Translations under genes and position numbers: made by a program
The notes under the pieces: generated by a model
What the model was told of the DNA's origin: nothing
The model's input: the letters and a program-made list of their open reading frames with translations, nothing else
The model's database searches: none
Source: a virus
Direction: 5' to 3' (one strand)
IMG/VR virus record: IMGVR_UViG_3300020057_000018
Coordinates: 1-32,790 of that record
DNA length: 32,790 bases
Shown here: in pieces, positions 2,360-29,914 of the stretch
Layout: each line of letters begins with the position of its first letter
Numbering within the stretch: the stretch's first letter is position 1

Positions 2360-3385
2360 TTATTTGTTGGAGTTCGCAATCATGGCCTTAGCTTGCATGT
2401 CGCCCATGATTTGCTGCATGAGCGCAGACTGTTGAGCTGCGTTAAGTCCCGCGTAACCCATTTCGGTGGTAAGCTTTCCGAATAATTCTTTATTCGCTTG
2501 AGCTTGGTTGTAGATTTGTTTTTCGTTCTCAGATTTTTCGGCTCCAGTAATCGAACCCTCAAGAGCCCCAAGAGCTCCAGTCTTACGTCCCAACTCTTCT
2601 GTCTCCGCAGCTCTACGTGATGCTTCAAGAGCGCTAAGTGTGTCTTGCTGTCTAGCGTACTGAGTTCCTTCAATACCAGTTGAAGACTGTTCAAAGGCTG
2701 CAAGTGCTTTCTCTTTTTGACCTATGTTCTGTAGGAATAAATCCCTAGCGAGTTGCCCGCGTGCTGCTTGCCCCGCATTAAGGGCTTGTGCTTGCTGAGC
2801 TGCCTGTAGTCCGCCACGTATACCAGACCCAGCCTGGACTCCACGTAATTGACGTAGCGCAGTTTGTTGTCCCTGCTGAATTCCTTGAAGGCCCTGCTCA
2901 CGTAAAGCGTTATTTTCTTGTGAATTAAACCCTTGAAGCGCAGACCTACGCATTGATAAAATGTCTTGGTTATTTTGCGATAAGCTTTGCTGTTGCCCTT
3001 GAGCCTGCTCTCTTCTTGTTAGTATGTCTGTAATAGCGTTAGTTCTTTGACCAGCAGTAGATGCCATTGATCTTCTTTGGTCGATAATGCTTTGCAAATC
3101 AGCACTGCGGCCAGCGCTAATTCTTCCTAGAGCATTGTTACCGAAAATTTCGTTACCGCGAGTTCTGCCTTTTTCGATAGCGGCATTTTGCGAATCTGTC
3201 GCAGATTGTAGCAACTCTTGTTTTCTAGCGTCTGCCGCTATCTGGTTAGCTCTCTCAATACTGCGCTGAGCGGCTGCGTCGCCTTCTTTGCTGATACGCA
3301 TTTTCTCAGCCAGTCGATACGAATCTTCTCTGTCTTCTTTTAGCTTATCTTCTGCACTCGCACCAAACCCAAAAAAACCCGCCAT
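2360..3385 (-). CDS. Gln/Ala-rich internal virion protein, 341 aa
   Basis: Starts at ATG 3385 with MAGFFGFG. Nearly the whole sequence is Gln, Ala, Arg and Glu in predicted alpha helix, with few aromatics apart from the first residues. The centre (about 125-215) carries many QQ, QG and AQ steps, including GLQGIQQGQQTALRQLRG. This composition is typical of podovirus internal core proteins, which are stored in the head and ejected. It follows the nozzle and the 120-aa protein and precedes two further ejection-type genes, so the three probably act together. No named family can be assigned from sequence alone. Confidence 0.8.
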   Translation of the reverse strand: MAGFFGFGASAEDKLKEDREDSYRLAEKMRISKEGDAAAQRSIERANQIAADARKQELLQSATDSQNAAIEKGRTRGNEIFGNNALGRISAGRSADLQSIIDQRRSMASTAGQRTNAITDILTRREQAQGQQQSLSQNNQDILSMRRSALQGFNSQENNALREQGLQGIQQGQQTALRQLRGVQAGSGIRGGLQAAQQAQALNAGQAARGQLARDLFLQNIGQKEKALAAFEQSSTGIEGTQYARQQDTLSALEASRRAAETEELGRKTGALGALEGSITGAEKSENEKQIYNQAQANKELFGKLTTEMGYAGLNAAQQSALMQQIMGDMQAKAMIANSNK

Positions 3386-3415
3386 ATAAACTCCATTTTT
3401 ATACTAGTTAACTGT

Positions 3416-3778
3416 CTACCTAATGAATGCAGCTGTAACAGTGACTGTTACCGCTCCCCTATTTTGAAGATACACATAGTTTATATCCCATGCAGTATCG
3501 CCGTCAGTAATATTTTGAGCACCACTACCACCACGAAGGATTATTTTTTGCGTAGGGGTTTGAGACTCCTTGAGTTGGTTTCGTATGGCCACCTCTGTCA
3601 TTGCTGGCAGTGACACCTCCACAACGAAACAGTTAAAATTATCATTAAAACTAAGCTTAGTAAGCCCCAGTTGAAGTTCTCTAATGATCTTTTTTAGGTC
3701 GTCTCTTAAATACGAATTCACGTCTACAATGAGGTCCTGGCTAAAAGAACGAAACTCTTTAAATAAGCTAAACCTCAT
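3416..3778 (-). CDS. Small virion-module protein, 120 aa, function unknown
   Basis: ATG 3778 overlaps the stop of the nozzle gene as ATGA, so the two are translationally coupled. The N-terminal half is helical (about residues 5-45); the second half is beta-rich and ends in a run of alternating Val/Thr (GAVTVTVTAAFIR) that looks like the edge of a beta-sandwich. There is no signal peptide. Its place between the nozzle and the internal proteins suggests a tail accessory or assembly factor. I do not recognise the family. Confidence 0.75.
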   Translation of the reverse strand: MRFSLFKEFRSFSQDLIVDVNSYLRDDLKKIIRELQLGLTKLSFNDNFNCFVVEVSLPAMTEVAIRNQLKESQTPTQKIILRGGSGAQNITDGDTAWDINYVYLQNRGAVTVTVTAAFIR

Positions 3779-8306: not shown

Positions 8307-10379
8307 TTAGTTTATTTTCTTAATGGTCAGCATCGTATTCCCACCAGTAGACGTTGTCACTGAAGACCCTGAGTTCTGGTAACATCTAACATCAAGCAAA
8401 TCACCAGCAACACATTGAGTTAACGCACTTACTGACGGAGTATTGGGGGCCGACGCTGTTCTGTCTACAACTATAAAAGGGACATCAGAAACAGAGACAC
8501 CGTTTTTATATAGAGCGACGGATATCTCGTTACCGATTGTCCATGGTGCCGATATAAATACTGACGATTGAACTTCATAGAATCCAGCCACTTGAACCAA
8601 ATAACGATTAGTGCTTGTATTGAATGCGTTCATAGTATCAAACACCCGTGTGTTAAAAGTGAGTATTGTAGGCGTTCCGCTAGGGACTACTGAACCCGTG
8701 CCAATTCTCAACGACGCAGCAACGACAGCGTTTGAAGCTGAAGAAACTCCGCTACCTGGTACTTTAGTAAAGTTCAAGCGGGCGTTAACACCAGCAAAAG
8801 TGTTTAATGAAACTCCGGAGGTCTGAGTGCATCGTATGAGTATAAACTCACCAGCCAATAAGTACACAGTTTCACGTACAGCTATATTTGGGTAATCCTC
8901 TCCAGTGTAGGGTCTCCTGTCCACGGCTGCGACCACCACTGCACCCTTAAGTATCTCAAGCGATACATACTCACCTGCATCAAAGTCCGCAGTTGTATTA
9001 AGGTACACACTAGCGGACACGTCATAATAGCCCGATTCTTGAGCTGTTATTTTCCCAGTGGCTGTATCATAAAGTGAATCGGTATCAACGGTTTTAGCGG
9101 TATACAGTAGGGTCGTATTTGATGTGACTGCTTGTACAGATCCACCGTATGAACCGGTTACTACTTTTCCAGCGTTTGAAGCTGAAGAAACTCCACTGCC
9201 TGACGACACTTCAAATACAGTTACAAAACTTTTTGTGCCGTCCGCAACGATAGTCAAAGTACCGCCAGAATTGTTATCAATTCTAAGGTCAATATACTCT
9301 CCAGCGTTCAACTGCACAGCGTCTGTCATTTGTGCGTCACCGTTAACCGCTACGGTACTTCTAGATACTTGAGAACCATTTTTAAAAATCTGCAATGAGA
9401 ATGCATTCGTTGCTGTCTGGTTAGTCCGAACTTCCGCAGATACACTGTACACGCCTGTTTTTTGCGCTGTAAACTTCCACGCTGCGCCCACTGTTACATT
9501 AGATGCATAGTCGAATGATTTATTTTCAAAATTAACGATATCCACGTTACCGTTTGCGATTGTTTGAGTACCAGCAGAGGAGTTATATCTGGATGAGGCA
9601 ATAGCGTTAGGCAACCCCAACGCTTGAGGCCCAACAACCACGTCGTCAATCTTTACTGTGTACGCCGACGCGCTAGTGGTAGCGACGTGTAGAATAAGTC
9701 TATAGCTAGTAGAGTTTGAGCTTGTTTGAAACGAGCTTCTGAACTTTAGCTTGCTAGAAATAACTGCGCCGTCAATAACCAAAGTGCTCGGCTCAATAAG
9801 CACAGAATTCGTAACATCATAAAGATACACAATGAGGTCAGAGTTAACAGTATTGACTCCACTACCAACAAAAGTCCCAGACGCAGGAGAATAGTCAAAA
9901 GATATCCCGAGCACTTGACCCTGATCAGACGAGTCAATCGCGAAAGCATAAGCTACCCCTTGGCCTTGGGAATTGACTGCTGTTTTAGTAAACAAGAAAC
10001 TAGAGATCCCATCAAGTGGCGCCGAAGTGGTTGACGTCCAAGTTACGGCAGGGGAACCACCAACACCGTCTACTGGGCGTGTCCCAGCGGCGTCGGCGTA
10101 AGTTGCCCAACCAGTAGTTGATGAGCCGTCACTCGCTAAAATGTAATTTTTTCCAGACGATCCACTTCCAAGTTCTGTCCAGTTAACTGTCAAACCAGCA
10201 TCTAACTTTCGATAAGTTTTTCCAGTCGAGTTATTGAGATACAAAGAACCAATCGGCGCCGATGTTGCCGAAACAGTTGGGTCAACTGCGCCAGACATAA
10301 TCTTATTACTGCCATTGATATCAATGTTGCTTTTAAGTGTTTTTACATCGTTGCCGCTAAAAATTACTGCTGAACCCAT
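8307..10379 (-). CDS. Fibre protein with three C1q/TNF-like jelly-roll domains, 690 aa
   Basis: Residues 1-75 carry a virion-anchor-like start with an IGSLYLNNSTGKTYRK block common in phage fibres. Residues about 80-250 look like a carbohydrate-binding jelly roll ending in YTVKIDDVVVGPQ. Three similar domains follow at about 258-392, 403-540 and 551-690, each with the order F-x-V/YDT start, a GYY/GVYSVSA/GFYEVQS strand, LEIxKxG, a LxAGEYxxLR strand and a final beta strand, which is the C1q/TNF-like pattern. Domains 2 and 3 are preceded by the linker GSGVSSASNA, encoded by near-identical DNA. A trimeric receptor-binding fibre is the natural reading; the domain names rest on pattern only. Confidence 0.8.
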   Translation of the reverse strand: MGSAVIFSGNDVKTLKSNIDINGSNKIMSGAVDPTVSATSAPIGSLYLNNSTGKTYRKLDAGLTVNWTELGSGSSGKNYILASDGSSTTGWATYADAAGTRPVDGVGGSPAVTWTSTTSAPLDGISSFLFTKTAVNSQGQGVAYAFAIDSSDQGQVLGISFDYSPASGTFVGSGVNTVNSDLIVYLYDVTNSVLIEPSTLVIDGAVISSKLKFRSSFQTSSNSTSYRLILHVATTSASAYTVKIDDVVVGPQALGLPNAIASSRYNSSAGTQTIANGNVDIVNFENKSFDYASNVTVGAAWKFTAQKTGVYSVSAEVRTNQTATNAFSLQIFKNGSQVSRSTVAVNGDAQMTDAVQLNAGEYIDLRIDNNSGGTLTIVADGTKSFVTVFEVSSGSGVSSASNAGKVVTGSYGGSVQAVTSNTTLLYTAKTVDTDSLYDTATGKITAQESGYYDVSASVYLNTTADFDAGEYVSLEILKGAVVVAAVDRRPYTGEDYPNIAVRETVYLLAGEFILIRCTQTSGVSLNTFAGVNARLNFTKVPGSGVSSASNAVVAASLRIGTGSVVPSGTPTILTFNTRVFDTMNAFNTSTNRYLVQVAGFYEVQSSVFISAPWTIGNEISVALYKNGVSVSDVPFIVVDRTASAPNTPSVSALTQCVAGDLLDVRCYQNSGSSVTTSTGGNTMLTIKKIN
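8727..8750. repeat. Linker repeat between jelly-roll domains, copy 1
   Basis: A 24-base sequence identical to 9171-9194, encoding the GSGVSSASNA-type linker in the fibre gene. It marks the edge of a duplicated domain. Confidence 0.85.
9171..9194. repeat. Linker repeat between jelly-roll domains, copy 2
   Basis: Second copy of the 24-base linker repeat, 444 bp (148 codons, one domain) from the first. The distance is a multiple of three, as expected for in-frame domain duplication. Confidence 0.85.
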
Positions 10380-26100: not shown

Positions 26101-27002
26101 TAAATCTCGCCTCTCCGAAGTTTTTCCAATAAGGCCTGATTACTGTGAGATACTTTTTCTGTATATAGAATACTTGTTGGGTCTTTTACTTCCATACCTG
26201 TTTCATGAAACTGTAAAATAGCGTTTAAATTTCCTTTCATCGTAAACAAGTCATGACGCTTTATGACAAGCCATCTGTCAGTCATTGCTAAATAACTCGG
26301 GATAACGTCGATAGCCCTTTTTAAAGTCAGTGCTTTTATAATATTTTTAACGACCCCTACCTGGTCAGATATTACGGGAGATACTCCGTACTTAATTTTG
26401 TACGCCTCACAGTAGGCAGCAATGAATAAATTAACCCCATCAGTTTGTTGAGAGTTAAGACCCTCGGAGTATAGATTCGCAGAATCTATATTCTCCGTTC
26501 CCTTTCTTTTCTCTGAGTTAGAGTTAGAGTTAGAGTTAGAGTTAGAGAATTGAGTAAGAGTAAGAGGAAGAGTAAGAGTAAGAGCTTCAGAGCCGTTCAG
26601 AGTCCGTTCAGTAATTACTGAACACCCGTTCAGTGTTTCCTTTAAACTTTTATCCGACTTTTTTTGTCTAGCATTCTGAAGAGAATCCATTTTTTTCTGA
26701 CTTAGAGATTTCCCAGAGTTCGATTTTTGTTTCAGCCAAGCGAATTGCTCCTCTTGTCCGCAAGCTTCCACACCACCATTAACGCGACTAGCCCAGCCTG
26801 TGGTTATTAGGTATTCTGGTAGCCCGGTTTGTATCCATTTGTGATCAGGTATAAATCCATATTTGAGATAGTATTCTTGAGCTTCTATCCAAAGCCACGC
26901 CAATGCTCCTAACGCAGTGTATCTTGAACCTCCAGTAGCTACACAAAGTTCAATAAACCTTCCATCTTTAAAGATGGAGTCTTCTATATTAATGCGTGCC
27001 AT
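26100..27002 (-). CDS. Replication initiator (lambda O-like), 300 aa
   Basis: ATG 27002 has AGGGG upstream. Residues 1-95 (MARINIEDSIFKDGRFIELCVATGGSRYTALGALAWLWIEAQEYYLKYGFIPDHKWIQTGLPEYL) form a winged-helix pattern seen in phage O-like initiators and DnaD-like proteins. Residues about 95-165 are a low-complexity linker rich in Ser, Lys, Thr-Leu repeats and (Ser-Asn) repeats, encoded by an origin-like repeat cluster. The C-terminal domain (about 185-290) contains GVNLFIAAYCEAYKIKYGVSPVISDQVGVVKNIIKAL and RAIDVIPSYLAMTDRWLVIKRHDLFTMKGNLNAILQ, a block frequent in phage replication proteins. It would bind the origin and recruit the loader and host helicase. The linker as origin parallels lambda O. 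Confidence 0.78.
   Translation of the reverse strand: MARINIEDSIFKDGRFIELCVATGGSRYTALGALAWLWIEAQEYYLKYGFIPDHKWIQTGLPEYLITTGWASRVNGGVEACGQEEQFAWLKQKSNSGKSLSQKKMDSLQNARQKKSDKSLKETLNGCSVITERTLNGSEALTLTLPLTLTQFSNSNSNSNSNSEKRKGTENIDSANLYSEGLNSQQTDGVNLFIAAYCEAYKIKYGVSPVISDQVGVVKNIIKALTLKRAIDVIPSYLAMTDRWLVIKRHDLFTMKGNLNAILQFHETGMEVKDPTSILYTEKVSHSNQALLEKLRRGEI
26465..26633. other. Candidate replication origin inside the initiator gene
   Basis: Three CCGTTCAG copies start at 26593, 26604 and 26626 (steps of 11 and 22, one and two helix turns), with a weaker TTCAG copy at 26586 and a perfect palindrome GTTCAGTAATTACTGAAC at 26606-26623. Next come a purine-rich tract, with five GAGTTA copies (26515-26544) and GAGTAA units to 26584, and a large inverted repeat, TATAGATTC-GCA-GAATCTATA flanked by CGGAG/CTCCG (26465-26497). 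Order iterons, low-complexity tract, inverted repeat resembles lambda ori. Function is inferred. Confidence 0.6.
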
Positions 27003-27240: not shown

Positions 27241-27302
27241 AAGAGTGGCTTTTTTTTAAGAGTGACGTATAGTCCTCTCACTTGAAAGGAAACCCGTGCG
27301 TT

Positions 27303-28106
27303 ATGAATACATCTCCAGAAGTGAAGGACCTCTTCACAGCCCTCTCCCTACTACAGTTAGAACTAGAGCCCGCCACTAAAGATACGATCAATCCCCACTT
27401 TAAGTCCAAATACGCGGACTTAGCGGAGGTTATACGCGTGTCTCAGTCCCTAATGGGAAAGCATGGCTTCTGCATCATACAAACCATCAGCCCCGACAAC
27501 GTCATGACAACAATCCTAGGGCATACGTCAGGCCAGTGGATACGCTCCGAATTGAAACTGGTACTACAGAAACAAGATATGCAAGGGCTTGGATCAGCAA
27601 TAACCTACGCTAGGCGTTACGCAAGAGCCGCTATCCTAGGGATTACTCAAGACGACGACGATGCCAACGACGCTTCTATAAGCCCCACACAAGCCTCCAC
27701 CCGTTTACCCAGGGTAACGCCCCTCACGGTTCAGAAAGCCTCGCCACAAGCGTCTGGCGACGTAGTTAAGGCAGTTAAAGCCGTGGTAACAGAAGCAACC
27801 TCCGACTCTAGAGCTAGAGACTTAGCAGGTCTTTTCATATCCAAGGGCTGGACCACCGTGCAAGCTAAGGAATATGTTCTAAAGGCATACGGTGTGCTTT
27901 CAATGAAAGACCTCACCCTAGAACAAGCTAAGGCGTTTCACACCGTTCTAACCGAGAGCGTGAACTTCTATGTAGCTGCCTCTAAGTTAGATCTACAGCA
28001 CACACCTGAACCAAACCCTTTAAGTGGGTTCGATGCTTTTAAGGTTAGCACCAAACCAGGCGAGGTAAGTAGTGGAGTGGTTGACTATGATGATGTGCCT
28101 TTTTGA
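27303..28106 (+). CDS. erf: ERF-family single-strand annealing protein with SSB-like C-terminal tip, 267 aa
   Basis: ATG 27303 was chosen over TTG 27282. Residues 1-130 read PEVKDLFTALSLLQLELEPATKDTINPHFKSKYADLAEVIRVSQSLMGKHGFCIIQ, then LKLVLQKQDMQGLGSAITYARRYARAAILGITQDDDDAND, the typical ERF (Essential Recombination Function) domain. A variable Ser/Thr/Val-rich region and a helical stretch (DLAGLFISKGWTTVQAKEYVLKAYGVLSMKDLTLEQAKAFHTVL) follow. The last seven residues are DYDDVPF, an acidic tip ending in PF like that of bacterial SSB. It would anneal complementary strands during concatemer formation, and the tip may recruit SSB-binding host proteins. First gene of the early operon. Confidence 0.88.
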   Translation: MNTSPEVKDLFTALSLLQLELEPATKDTINPHFKSKYADLAEVIRVSQSLMGKHGFCIIQTISPDNVMTTILGHTSGQWIRSELKLVLQKQDMQGLGSAITYARRYARAAILGITQDDDDANDASISPTQASTRLPRVTPLTVQKASPQASGDVVKAVKAVVTEATSDSRARDLAGLFISKGWTTVQAKEYVLKAYGVLSMKDLTLEQAKAFHTVLTESVNFYVAASKLDLQHTPEPNPLSGFDAFKVSTKPGEVSSGVVDYDDVPF

Positions 28107-28157: not shown

Positions 28158-28532
28158 ATGAACAAAGTAATTCTAATAGGTAACATTAGTAACCAGCCCG
28201 AAGTAAAGACCGGGTCTAAAGACGGTAGAGACTGGGCCAGTCTAAGGTTCAACCTGGTGACCTCTGAAAAGATAGGGGACGGCTATAAAAGGGAATGGCA
28301 CCGATGCTCCTGGTTTGGTGTGCGTGCTCAGAAAATGGCCTCCTATTTAGTGGAGGGAGCTACTCTTCAAATAGAAGGTCGCCTTACAACTAAGAAGTGG
28401 ACCGATCGTAACGGAACAGAGAAATACTCAACAGAGATTGAATTGAACGACGCTAATTTCCTACCAAAGCAATTTGAACCTAGAACGGGCGATAACGTGC
28501 TCCCATCCCCTAATGAAAGCGATGTATTCTAG
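28158..28532 (+). CDS. ssb: Single-stranded DNA-binding protein, 124 aa
   Basis: ATG 28158 has a strong CAAGGAGA site. The OB fold is evident: MNKVILIGNISNQPEVKTGSKDGRDWASLRFNLVTSE, then REWHRCSWFGVRAQKMASYLVEGATLQIEGRLTTKKWTDRNGTEKYSTEIELND, with the usual strand order and aromatic DNA-contact residues. The C terminus is short (PNESDVF) and lacks the usual PF tip. It coats single strands during replication and annealing by the adjacent ERF protein. Stop TAG overlaps the GTG of the next gene. Confidence 0.93.
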   Translation: MNKVILIGNISNQPEVKTGSKDGRDWASLRFNLVTSEKIGDGYKREWHRCSWFGVRAQKMASYLVEGATLQIEGRLTTKKWTDRNGTEKYSTEIELNDANFLPKQFEPRTGDNVLPSPNESDVF

Positions 28533-28798: not shown

Positions 28799-29086
28799 AT
28801 GAAAAAACAATATGTTATAGTTAGGACGCAGTCGGCTGGAGTATTCGCTGGGTATATTAAAAAACGGACCGGGCAAGAGGTTGTTATGACCGAAGCTAGA
28901 CGGCTTTGGTACTGGGACGGTGCCGCTAGCCTATCTCAGCTGTGCATCGATGGGGTCTCTAAACCTCAATCTTGTAGATTCCCCGAAGCCGTGCCGCGTG
29001 TGCTGTTAATGCAAGTGATTGAGATTTTAGACTGCTCTGACAAAGCAAAAAAATCGATAGGTTCGGTGCCTATATGGAGAGCGTAA
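28799..29086 (+). CDS. DUF6948-like phage protein, 95 aa
   Basis: ATG 28799 follows a GGGAG site. The sequence KKQYVIVRTQSAGVFAGYIKKRTGQEVVMTEARRLWYWDGAASLSQLCIDGVSKPQSCRFPEAVPRVLLMQVIEILDCSDKAKKSIGSVPIWRA matches the family I remember as DUF6948: YVIVRTxSAGVFAG, ARRLWYWDGAASLSQL and EIL are its marks. Members are found in many phages, often with glycine-rich neighbours; the function is not known to me. It could be a small virion or regulatory protein. Its end overlaps the first Gly-rich cassette by 13 bases. Confidence 0.75.
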   Translation: MKKQYVIVRTQSAGVFAGYIKKRTGQEVVMTEARRLWYWDGAASLSQLCIDGVSKPQSCRFPEAVPRVLLMQVIEILDCSDKAKKSIGSVPIWRA

Positions 29087-29181
29087 ACCCAGGCCAAGGT
29101 AACGGCTCAGGCGTAGGCTCTGGCTATGGTGACGGCTATGGTAACAGCTCAGGCTACGGCTACGGAGATGGCCATGGGTAA
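29074..29181 (+). CDS. Gly/Ser/Tyr-rich cassette 1, 35 aa
   Basis: ATG 29074 overlaps the previous gene. The product (MESVNPGQGNGSG..., ending GYGYGDGHG) is built of alternating glycine with Ser, Tyr, Asn and Asp. It ends at TAA in GGG-TAA-C, and the ATG of cassette 2 lies inside the same eight bases (ATGGGTAA). The following frame is +1. Expression alone, reinitiation, or +1 slippage into cassette 2 are all possible. The region is short and of low complexity. Confidence 0.55.
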   Translation: MESVNPGQGNGSGVGSGYGDGYGNSSGYGYGDGHG

Positions 29182-29183
29182 CA
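29147..29183. repeat. 37-bp cassette-end repeat, copy 1
   Basis: Identical to 29412-29448; includes the GGG-TAA-C stop and the overlapping ATG. The 265-bp distance is 1 modulo 3, which moves the frame by +1. Confidence 0.9.
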
Positions 29184-29446
29184 GCTCCGGCTTAGGTTCT
29201 GGCTATGGTAACAGCTTAGGCTCAGGTGATGGCTCAGGTAACGGCCCAGGTTTAGGCACAGGTTGGGGTGACGGCTCAGGTTGGGGTAACAGCGCGGGCG
29301 CGGGCTATGGTAACAGCTCAGGCTATGGTGATAACTATGGTAACGGCGAAAGTGATGGCTCAGGTATGGGCGAAAGTGACGGCTATGGTAACGGCTCAGG
29401 CTATGGTGATGGCTCAGGCTACGGCTACGGAGATGGCCATGGGTAA
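29174..29446 (+). CDS. Gly/Ser/Tyr-rich cassette 2, 90 aa
   Basis: ATG 29174 is the ATG of ATGGGTAA. The product starts MGNSSGLGSGYGNSLG and ends GYGYGDGHG*, again GGG-TAA-C. It is glycine in nearly every second position, with units such as GYGNSSG, GDGSG and GMGESDG. The pattern suggests a flexible or polyglycine-II-like beta-helical structure. The 37 bases at its end (29412-29448) equal those at the end of cassette 1 (29147-29183). Confidence 0.6.
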   Translation: MGNSSGLGSGYGNSLGSGDGSGNGPGLGTGWGDGSGWGNSAGAGYGNSSGYGDNYGNGESDGSGMGESDGYGNGSGYGDGSGYGYGDGHG

Positions 29447-29448
29447 CA
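29412..29448. repeat. 37-bp cassette-end repeat, copy 2
   Basis: Second copy of the 37-base repeat, with the same stop and start. The third junction at 29661-29670 is shorter but keeps GGG-TAA-C. Confidence 0.9.
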
Positions 29449-29669
29449 ACTCAGGCTATGGTTCTGGCTCAGGCTCCGGCTCAGGCTATGGTAACAGTTT
29501 AGGCTCAGGTGATGGCTCTGGCTCCGGCTCAGGCTATGGTAACAGTTCAAACTATGGTTATAGCTACGGTAACGGCTCAGGCGTAGGCTCAGGTTATAGT
29601 AATGGCTCAGGCGATGGCACAGGTGATGGCTCAGGTTGGGGTGACGGCCCAGGTATGGGCGATGGGTAA
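29439..29669 (+). CDS. Gly/Ser/Tyr-rich cassette 3, 76 aa
   Basis: ATG 29439, again in ATGGGTAA, +1 to cassette 2. It starts MGNNSGYGSGSGSGSGYGNS and ends GMGDG*, with GAT-GGG-TAA-C. A further ATGGGTAAC start at 29662 would open a 27-aa frame (29662-29745) ending in YSGTTWWV; I do not call it as a gene because it overlaps the next one and lacks the repeat. Composition as in cassettes 1 and 2. Confidence 0.58.
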   Translation: MGNNSGYGSGSGSGSGYGNSLGSGDGSGSGSGYGNSSNYGYSYGNGSGVGSGYSNGSGDGTGDGSGWGDGPGMGDG

Positions 29670-29701
29670 CAGTGTATTCGTAAACACTCTGGAGAGTAAG
29701 T

Positions 29702-29914
29702 ATGGGTTTCTTATCTTTTATAGCGGTACTACTTGGTGGGTATAGTGCTTTATCTTTATTGGTTGCCGCCTACGACGAGACCATTAACGCCTCTCAGTTA
29801 GCTACAATGAAGCACTACCACTGGGACGAGTTCATACAGCGACGTAAGGTTAAAGGTGTCTACCTGGTGACCTTATTGATGTGCTCTGTCTACCTCTGGG
29901 TGCGACACCTGTAA
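29702..29914 (+). CDS. Small membrane protein, 70 aa
   Basis: ATG 29702 has GGAGAG seven bases upstream. The product starts with a hydrophobic helix (FLSFIAVLLGGYSALSLLVAAY, about 3-24), then a polar loop with DETINASQLATMKHYHWDEFIQRRKVK, and ends with a second hydrophobic helix (GVYLVTLLMCSVYLWV, about 51-66). Two membrane segments with a cytoplasmic or periplasmic loop are expected. Role unknown; early expression could mean host takeover or exclusion. Confidence 0.72.
   Translation: MGFLSFIAVLLGGYSALSLLVAAYDETINASQLATMKHYHWDEFIQRRKVKGVYLVTLLMCSVYLWVRHL

What the first reader, a model, noticed from the sequence alone, without database searches (positions are those of the whole stretch)
29074..29745. 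Chain of Gly-rich cassettes joined by a conserved GGG-TAA-C / ATGGGTAA stop-start that steps the frame by +1
Three successive Gly/Ser/Tyr-rich frames (29074-29181, 29174-29446, 29439-29669) each end at GGG-TAA-C, and at each place ATG GGT AAC opens the next frame within the same eight bases. Cassette lengths between junctions are 265 and 223, both 1 modulo 3, so every junction moves the frame by +1. GGG-TAA-C in the P and A sites is the arrangement used by the RF2 +1 shift (CTT-TGA-C): a glycine tRNA slipping from GGG to GGT would continue as N-S-S-G, which fits the repeat exactly. So either tandem reinitiation produces several short proteins, or +1 frameshifting produces ladders of fused glycine-rich proteins. 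A third option is repeat expansion or contraction switching the frame. It follows a DUF6948-like gene.
Basis: partly seen in the sequence, partly recalled or inferred. Interest (0 to 1): 0.75.

Follow-up and report, generated by a model that had tools for sequence, protein, structure and literature searches.

The report
Tandem phage glycine-repeat genes, overlapping stop-start
A phage carries three glycine-repeat genes in a row whose ends and starts overlap by eight bases; comparison with relatives indicates ordinary overlapping genes started afresh each time rather than a ribosome changing frame, and they sit behind a gene for a predicted Sm-like (RNA-binding-type) protein, as in nearly every related virus examined.

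Summary
In detail: three (Gly-X)n frames (29074-29181, 29174-29446, 29439-29669) each end ATGGGTAA, and at the first two ends the ATG opens the next cassette in the +1 frame. The +1-frameshift reading is not supported. In 18 tandem junctions between (GX)n ORFs from 11 records (window included), frame steps are 0, +1 and +2, six each. Junction starts carry Shine-Dalgarno pairing (mean -6.8 kcal/mol, against -2.4 at 1325 internal ATGs). In the window the only two GGA codons of the array create GGAG six bases before the two junction ATGs. So these are tandem overlapping genes of the common -8 nt overlap class, most likely translated by termination-reinitiation or SD-driven initiation. The octamer inside a (GX)n array was found nowhere else in IMG/VR with the pattern used, but a GenBank phage (MW202898.1) has ATGGGTAG in the same place. 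The wider setting is the more novel part: a (GX)n ORF directly follows DUF6948 in 151 of 156 evaluable distinct loci, usually overlapping its stop, and DUF6948 is predicted with high confidence to be an Sm/LSm-like barrel. Translation, reads and function remain untested.

The parts
28799..29086 (+). DUF6948 gene (95 aa), predicted Sm/LSm-like small beta-barrel; its stop overlaps the start of cassette 1 by 13 nt
   Evidence: Pfam PF22253 E=1.7e-31; AlphaFold2 pLDDT 96.7; listed top 50 PDB fold hits essentially all Sm/LSm or related decapping-factor LSm domains, best E 7e-3
29074..29181 (+). (GX)n cassette 1, 35 aa, starts MESVNPG
   Evidence: same -13 overlap with the DUF6948 stop in 89 of 151 distinct loci
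29164..29167 (+). GGAG, SD-like, 6 nt before ATG 29174; one of only two GGA codons among the array's glycines
29174..29181 (+). ATGGGTAA: stop of cassette 1 and start of cassette 2 (-8 overlap, +1 frame)
29174..29446 (+). (GX)n cassette 2, 90 aa
29429..29432 (+). GGAG, SD-like, 6 nt before ATG 29439; the other GGA codon
29439..29446 (+). ATGGGTAA: stop of cassette 2 and start of cassette 3
29439..29669 (+). (GX)n cassette 3, 76 aa
29662..29669 (+). terminal ATGGGTAA; no GGAG, only a 27-residue non-Gly frame follows; probable ancestral gene end
29147..29183 (+). 37-nt exact repeat unit carrying SD-stop-start (copy at 29412-29448)
29702..29914 (+). next gene, 70 aa, hydrophobic N-terminus, SD GGAG at 29691; no relative found

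Best explanation
Three tandem copies of a (Gly-X)n low-complexity gene, each a separate ORF, follow the DUF6948 gene, whose product is predicted to be an Sm-like barrel. The ribosome ends each cassette at TAA; a GGAG just upstream then positions it (reinitiation or coupled new initiation) on the ATG overlapping that stop by 8 nt. The junctions most likely arose by recombination between the gene end (GATGGGTAACAG) and an internal in-frame repeat (TATGGTAACAGC), which share GGTAACAG; such an event creates stop, start and +1 step together. Likely outcome: several (GX)n chains per DUF6948 chain. Shown: the ORFs, SD and overlap geometry, varied frame steps in relatives, gene-pair conservation. Inferred: translation, birth by recombination, stoichiometry, partnership of the (GX)n protein with the DUF6948 protein.
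For: Eighteen tandem junctions in 11 records have frame steps 0/1/2 at six each, with SD energy -6.8 against -2.4 kcal/mol at 1325 internal ATGs. Some junctions cannot be crossed by a +1 shift because the next ORF is in the same frame (L040, L161, L036). Where the array continues straight past the first stop (6 of 147 closed ORFs) a start codon is present there. In the window the junction ATGs have the strongest SD pairing of the ATGs inside the array. MW202898.1 has an equivalent GAT-GGG-TAG overlap. All 11 internal GGTAAC copies are in frame as GGT-AAC and only the three cassette ends carry it out of frame. The -8 nt overlap is the third commonest gene overlap across 1,695 prokaryotic species, and coupling falls off sharply with distance (PMC10666635); translational coupling at overlaps was shown in 13 of 14 tested pairs (PMC6728339).
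Against: No expression or mass-spectrometry data exist. The two internal junctions are copies of one 37-nt unit, so the SD evidence inside the window is a single event. Cassette 1 (35 aa) is short for the family (median 85, 5th percentile 48). GGAG alone is a moderate SD (-6.6). The MW202898.1 junction ATG lacks a well-spaced SD. Some junctions have weak SDs (L308 junctions 2 and 4). No close relative of the window was found, so the recombination step is not traced.
Confidence: 0.8

Rival explanations
1. Programmed +1 frameshifting at GGG-TAA-C fuses the cassettes into ladders of longer glycine-rich proteins, as in RF2 (prfB).
For: A P-site Gly-tRNA could slip from GGG to GGT and continue N-S-S-G in frame; a 3' C weakens termination at the RF2 stop (PMC5009743); GGG codons occur only at the cassette ends.
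Against: Frame steps at homologous junctions are uniform over 0, 1 and 2. TAA is read by both release factors, while the RF2 site is UGA. GGAG-to-GGG spacing is 8 nt, against about 3 nt in prfB (from general knowledge). No stimulatory structure. The GGG-TAA-C arrangement in a (GX)n array is not found elsewhere in IMG/VR with the pattern used.
Confidence: 0.06
2. Sequencing or assembly error (an extra G in ATGGTAAC), so that the real gene is one long (GX)n ORF of about 200 aa.
For: ATGGTAA occurs 7 times in the array, one G short of the junction octamer; long repeats are hard to assemble; most relatives have a single ORF.
Against: The same octamer forms the natural end at 29662. Relatives have tandem cassettes with unrelated junctions. 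MW202898.1, assembled independently, has the same -8 overlap. About 200 aa of GX repeat would be far above the family median of 85 aa. An error would not place the only GGA codons 6 nt before the ATGs.
Confidence: 0.06
3. Repeat-slippage phase variation: indels in the array switch cassettes on and off.
For: The repeats are unstable: L333 loses and regains the GX frame, and one L040 cassette is broken.
Against: No population data; cassettes 2 and 3 are fully open in the GX frame with their own starts.
Confidence: 0.08

Closest known systems
Overlapping gene pairs coupled by termination-reinitiation (-4, -1, -8 nt overlaps; PMC6728339, PMC10666635)
   Same: ATGNNTAA is the -8 class; SD inside the upstream gene; same strand
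   Different: Here both members are copies of one low-complexity gene and the junction itself is duplicated
RF2 (prfB) programmed +1 frameshift site (PMC5009743)
   Same: Stop followed by C, SD-like element upstream, +1 geometry
   Different: TAA not TGA, GGG not CTT, SD spacing fits initiation, frame step not conserved in relatives
Acinetobacter baumannii Hfq (Sm core with GGFGGQ repeat tail; PMC11617691)
   Same: Sm-type barrel paired with a repetitive glycine-rich segment
   Different: In Hfq the tail is fused to the Sm domain; here it is a separate overlapping ORF (0 fused of 294 loci), the repeat is strict Gly-X rich in S, Y and D, and no common descent is shown
3by7, protein structurally similar to Sm/LSm-like RNA-binding proteins (JCVI_PEP_1096686650277), in the PDB
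   Same: Fold match to the DUF6948 model
   Different: Weak fold-level match (E 0.03, 13-14% identity); no sequence-profile match to any PDB chain

Membership tests
Overlapping gene pair (-8 nt class) | Stop of the upstream gene and start of the downstream gene overlap by 8 nt on the same strand | tested here: met
   29174 and 29439
Overlapping gene pair (-8 nt class) | SD-like element at proper spacing before the downstream start | tested here: met
   GGAG, 6 nt spacing, -6.6 kcal/mol
Overlapping gene pair (-8 nt class) | Translation of the downstream ORF depends on translation of the upstream ORF | not testable with these tools
   needs reporters or ribosome profiling
RF2-type +1 frameshift cassette | UGA stop with slippery CUU before it | tested here: not met
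   GGG-TAA
RF2-type +1 frameshift cassette | SD about 3 nt before the P-site codon | tested here: not met
   GGAG is 8 nt before GGG (the RF2 spacing is from general knowledge)
RF2-type +1 frameshift cassette | +1 step conserved in relatives | tested here: not met
   steps 6/6/6 at 18 junctions
DUF6948 (PF22253) | Profile match above the gathering score | tested here: met
   108.6 bits against 27
Sm/LSm fold | Five-stranded small barrel matching Sm/LSm structures | tested here: met
   model with pLDDT 96.7; listed top 50 PDB hits essentially all Sm/LSm type, best E 7e-3, none below 1e-3
Sm/LSm fold | Sm1/Sm2 sequence motifs, ring assembly, RNA binding | not tested
   no profile match to any PDB chain; assembly and RNA binding need experiments

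The most novel reading that the evidence does not exclude
DUF6948 and the (GX)n protein form an undescribed two-gene phage system: an Sm-like ring whose Hfq-like glycine/tyrosine-rich tail is supplied in trans by an overlapping ORF, with tail dosage raised by self-propagating stop-start cassettes.
Probability: 0.35. Interest if true: 0.75.

Novelty: new variant of a known kind. Interest (0 to 1): 0.45.

Why it matters
It shows how a repetitive gene can multiply into tandem overlapping ORFs with ready-made start signals, and warns against reading such junctions as recoding. The wider result, a nearly universal pairing of a predicted Sm-like phage protein with a strict Gly-X repeat protein, points to an unstudied phage system found in environmental and gut phages.

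Tried and rejected
Exact junction pattern in IMG/VR: 38 matches, none with (GX)n on both sides. The downstream 70-aa gene as a synteny anchor: no relative. The window's SSB as an anchor: distant loci only, none with a (GX)n array. Megablast of 12.8 kb against phage records: no match. Literature: no paper held contains the term DUF6948, and searches for phage glycine-repeat proteins gave nothing relevant. Frameshift-stimulating RNA structure: none. The C-terminal domain fused to (GX)n in some, mainly gut, relatives: no credible Pfam match to the domain and no PDB fold match. A fused DUF6948-(GX)n protein, suggested by phrog_18306 matching both parts, was not found in 294 loci.

Full report
What is there. 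The window is a 32.8-kb virus record with SU10-like adaptor and portal genes and a weak SU10 capsid match. ERF (27282-28106), SSB (28158-28532) and DUF6948 (28799-29086) precede the array. Three open (Gly-X)n frames follow, with ATGGGTAA at 29174, 29439 and 29662. The first two copies are stop-starts between cassettes; the third ends the array and only a 27-residue non-glycine frame follows it. The octamer is unremarkable for the window as a whole but far above chance within the array (3 against 0.03). Junctions 1 and 2 share an exact 37-nt unit, so they count as one event.

Signals at the junction. The array's glycines are coded GGC or GGT except for two GGA codons (29164, 29429) and three GGG codons (each cassette's last codon). 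Each GGA is followed by GAT, giving GGAG six bases before the junction ATG. Anti-SD pairing at those ATGs is -6.6 kcal/mol, the strongest of the ATGs inside the array and close to the next gene's -6.8; the terminal ATG at 29662, with no cassette behind it, has -4.7 and no GGAG. No unusual RNA structure is predicted. GGAG is 8 nt from the GGG codon, which does not fit the RF2-type stimulator.

Why +1. Any NAT-GGN codon pair (24 in the three cassettes) places an ATG in the +1 frame, so an ATG start made from such a pair must step by +1. All 11 internal GGTAAC copies are in frame as GGT-AAC; only the three cassette ends carry it out of frame. Joining an end to an internal copy through GGTAACA(G) would give the observed junction. 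This origin is inferred; no intermediate was found.

Relatives. Scans with DUF6948 queries, plus phage records, gave 294 loci, with duplicates. Of 185 distinct DUF6948 sequences, 156 had enough sequence downstream and 151 have a (GX)n ORF there. Its start overlaps the DUF6948 stop by 13 nt in 89, 17 in 23, 8 in 7 and 4 in 7. Of the five others, three have short (GX) peptides on inspection, one lacks one, and one appears to be a partial or unrelated match. X is S 38%, Y 26%, D 22%. Most arrays are one ORF (median 85 aa).

Tandem arrays. The census finds 18 junctions in 11 records including the window: frame steps 0, 1 and 2 at six each, mean SD energy -6.8 against -2.4 at 1325 internal ATGs, 2% of which reach -6.6. 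Where several starts were possible the script preferred ATG and then the strongest SD, which favours low energies somewhat. Junction DNA differs: TAATAAGGAGAAAGCAATG in L009, TAAGGAGGTAATTTG in L036, GGGGGTAGGCGATG in L040. Several downstream ORFs are in the same frame as the upstream one, which no +1 shift could serve. Where the array continues straight past the first stop (6 of 147) a start codon is present there. GenBank phage MW202898.1 has GAT-GGG-TAG with ATGGGTAG opening an 82-aa (GX) frame in +1, unannotated in the record.

Mechanism. The data fit separate ORFs joined by stop-start overlap. The -8 nt overlap is the third commonest in prokaryotes and coupling needs such short distances (PMC10666635; PMC6728339). 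Whether reinitiation or SD-driven initiation dominates cannot be told from sequence.

Setting. DUF6948 folds with mean pLDDT 96.7; the listed top 50 PDB matches are essentially all of Sm/LSm type, best E 7e-3, none below 1e-3, and one weaker viral hit is an Sm-like protein of a Synechococcus phage. No PDB chain matches by sequence profile. The (GX)n region of a relative is modelled with very low confidence, as expected of disorder. Overlapping pairs are enriched in subunits of one complex, so a partnership is plausible but untested; the Acinetobacter Hfq tail is an analogy only.

Noticed in passing
window 28799-29086 and about 290 related loci: DUF6948 is predicted to be an Sm/LSm-like barrel and is almost always followed by an overlapping (Gly-X)n ORF; neither seems described in the papers searched.
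   Followed up: partly
L219, L213, L215, L053, L081 and others (alignment A2): In some relatives, mainly gut-associated, the (GX)n segment is fused to a conserved C-terminal domain of about 150 aa (WHHxLTGSC motif) with no credible Pfam match and no PDB fold match; the model of that domain is confident.
   Followed up: partly
L308:2746-4432: Six tandem (GX)n cassettes with two alternating junction types (TTG start 33 nt after the stop; ATG overlapping it by 10-13 nt).
   Followed up: partly
L040:3283-4229: Near-identical (GX)n cassettes with the same junction sequence repeated, one cassette broken by an indel.
   Followed up: partly
L120:3065-3313 (MW202898.1): Unannotated (GX)n ORF; the record annotates an overlapping frame at 3138-3536 instead.
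   Followed up: yes
window 26515-26584: GAGTTA hexamer repeated about 11.5 times.
   Followed up: no
window 8307-10379, minus strand: 690-aa protein with a C-terminal C1q-like domain, possibly a tail or fibre protein.
   Followed up: no
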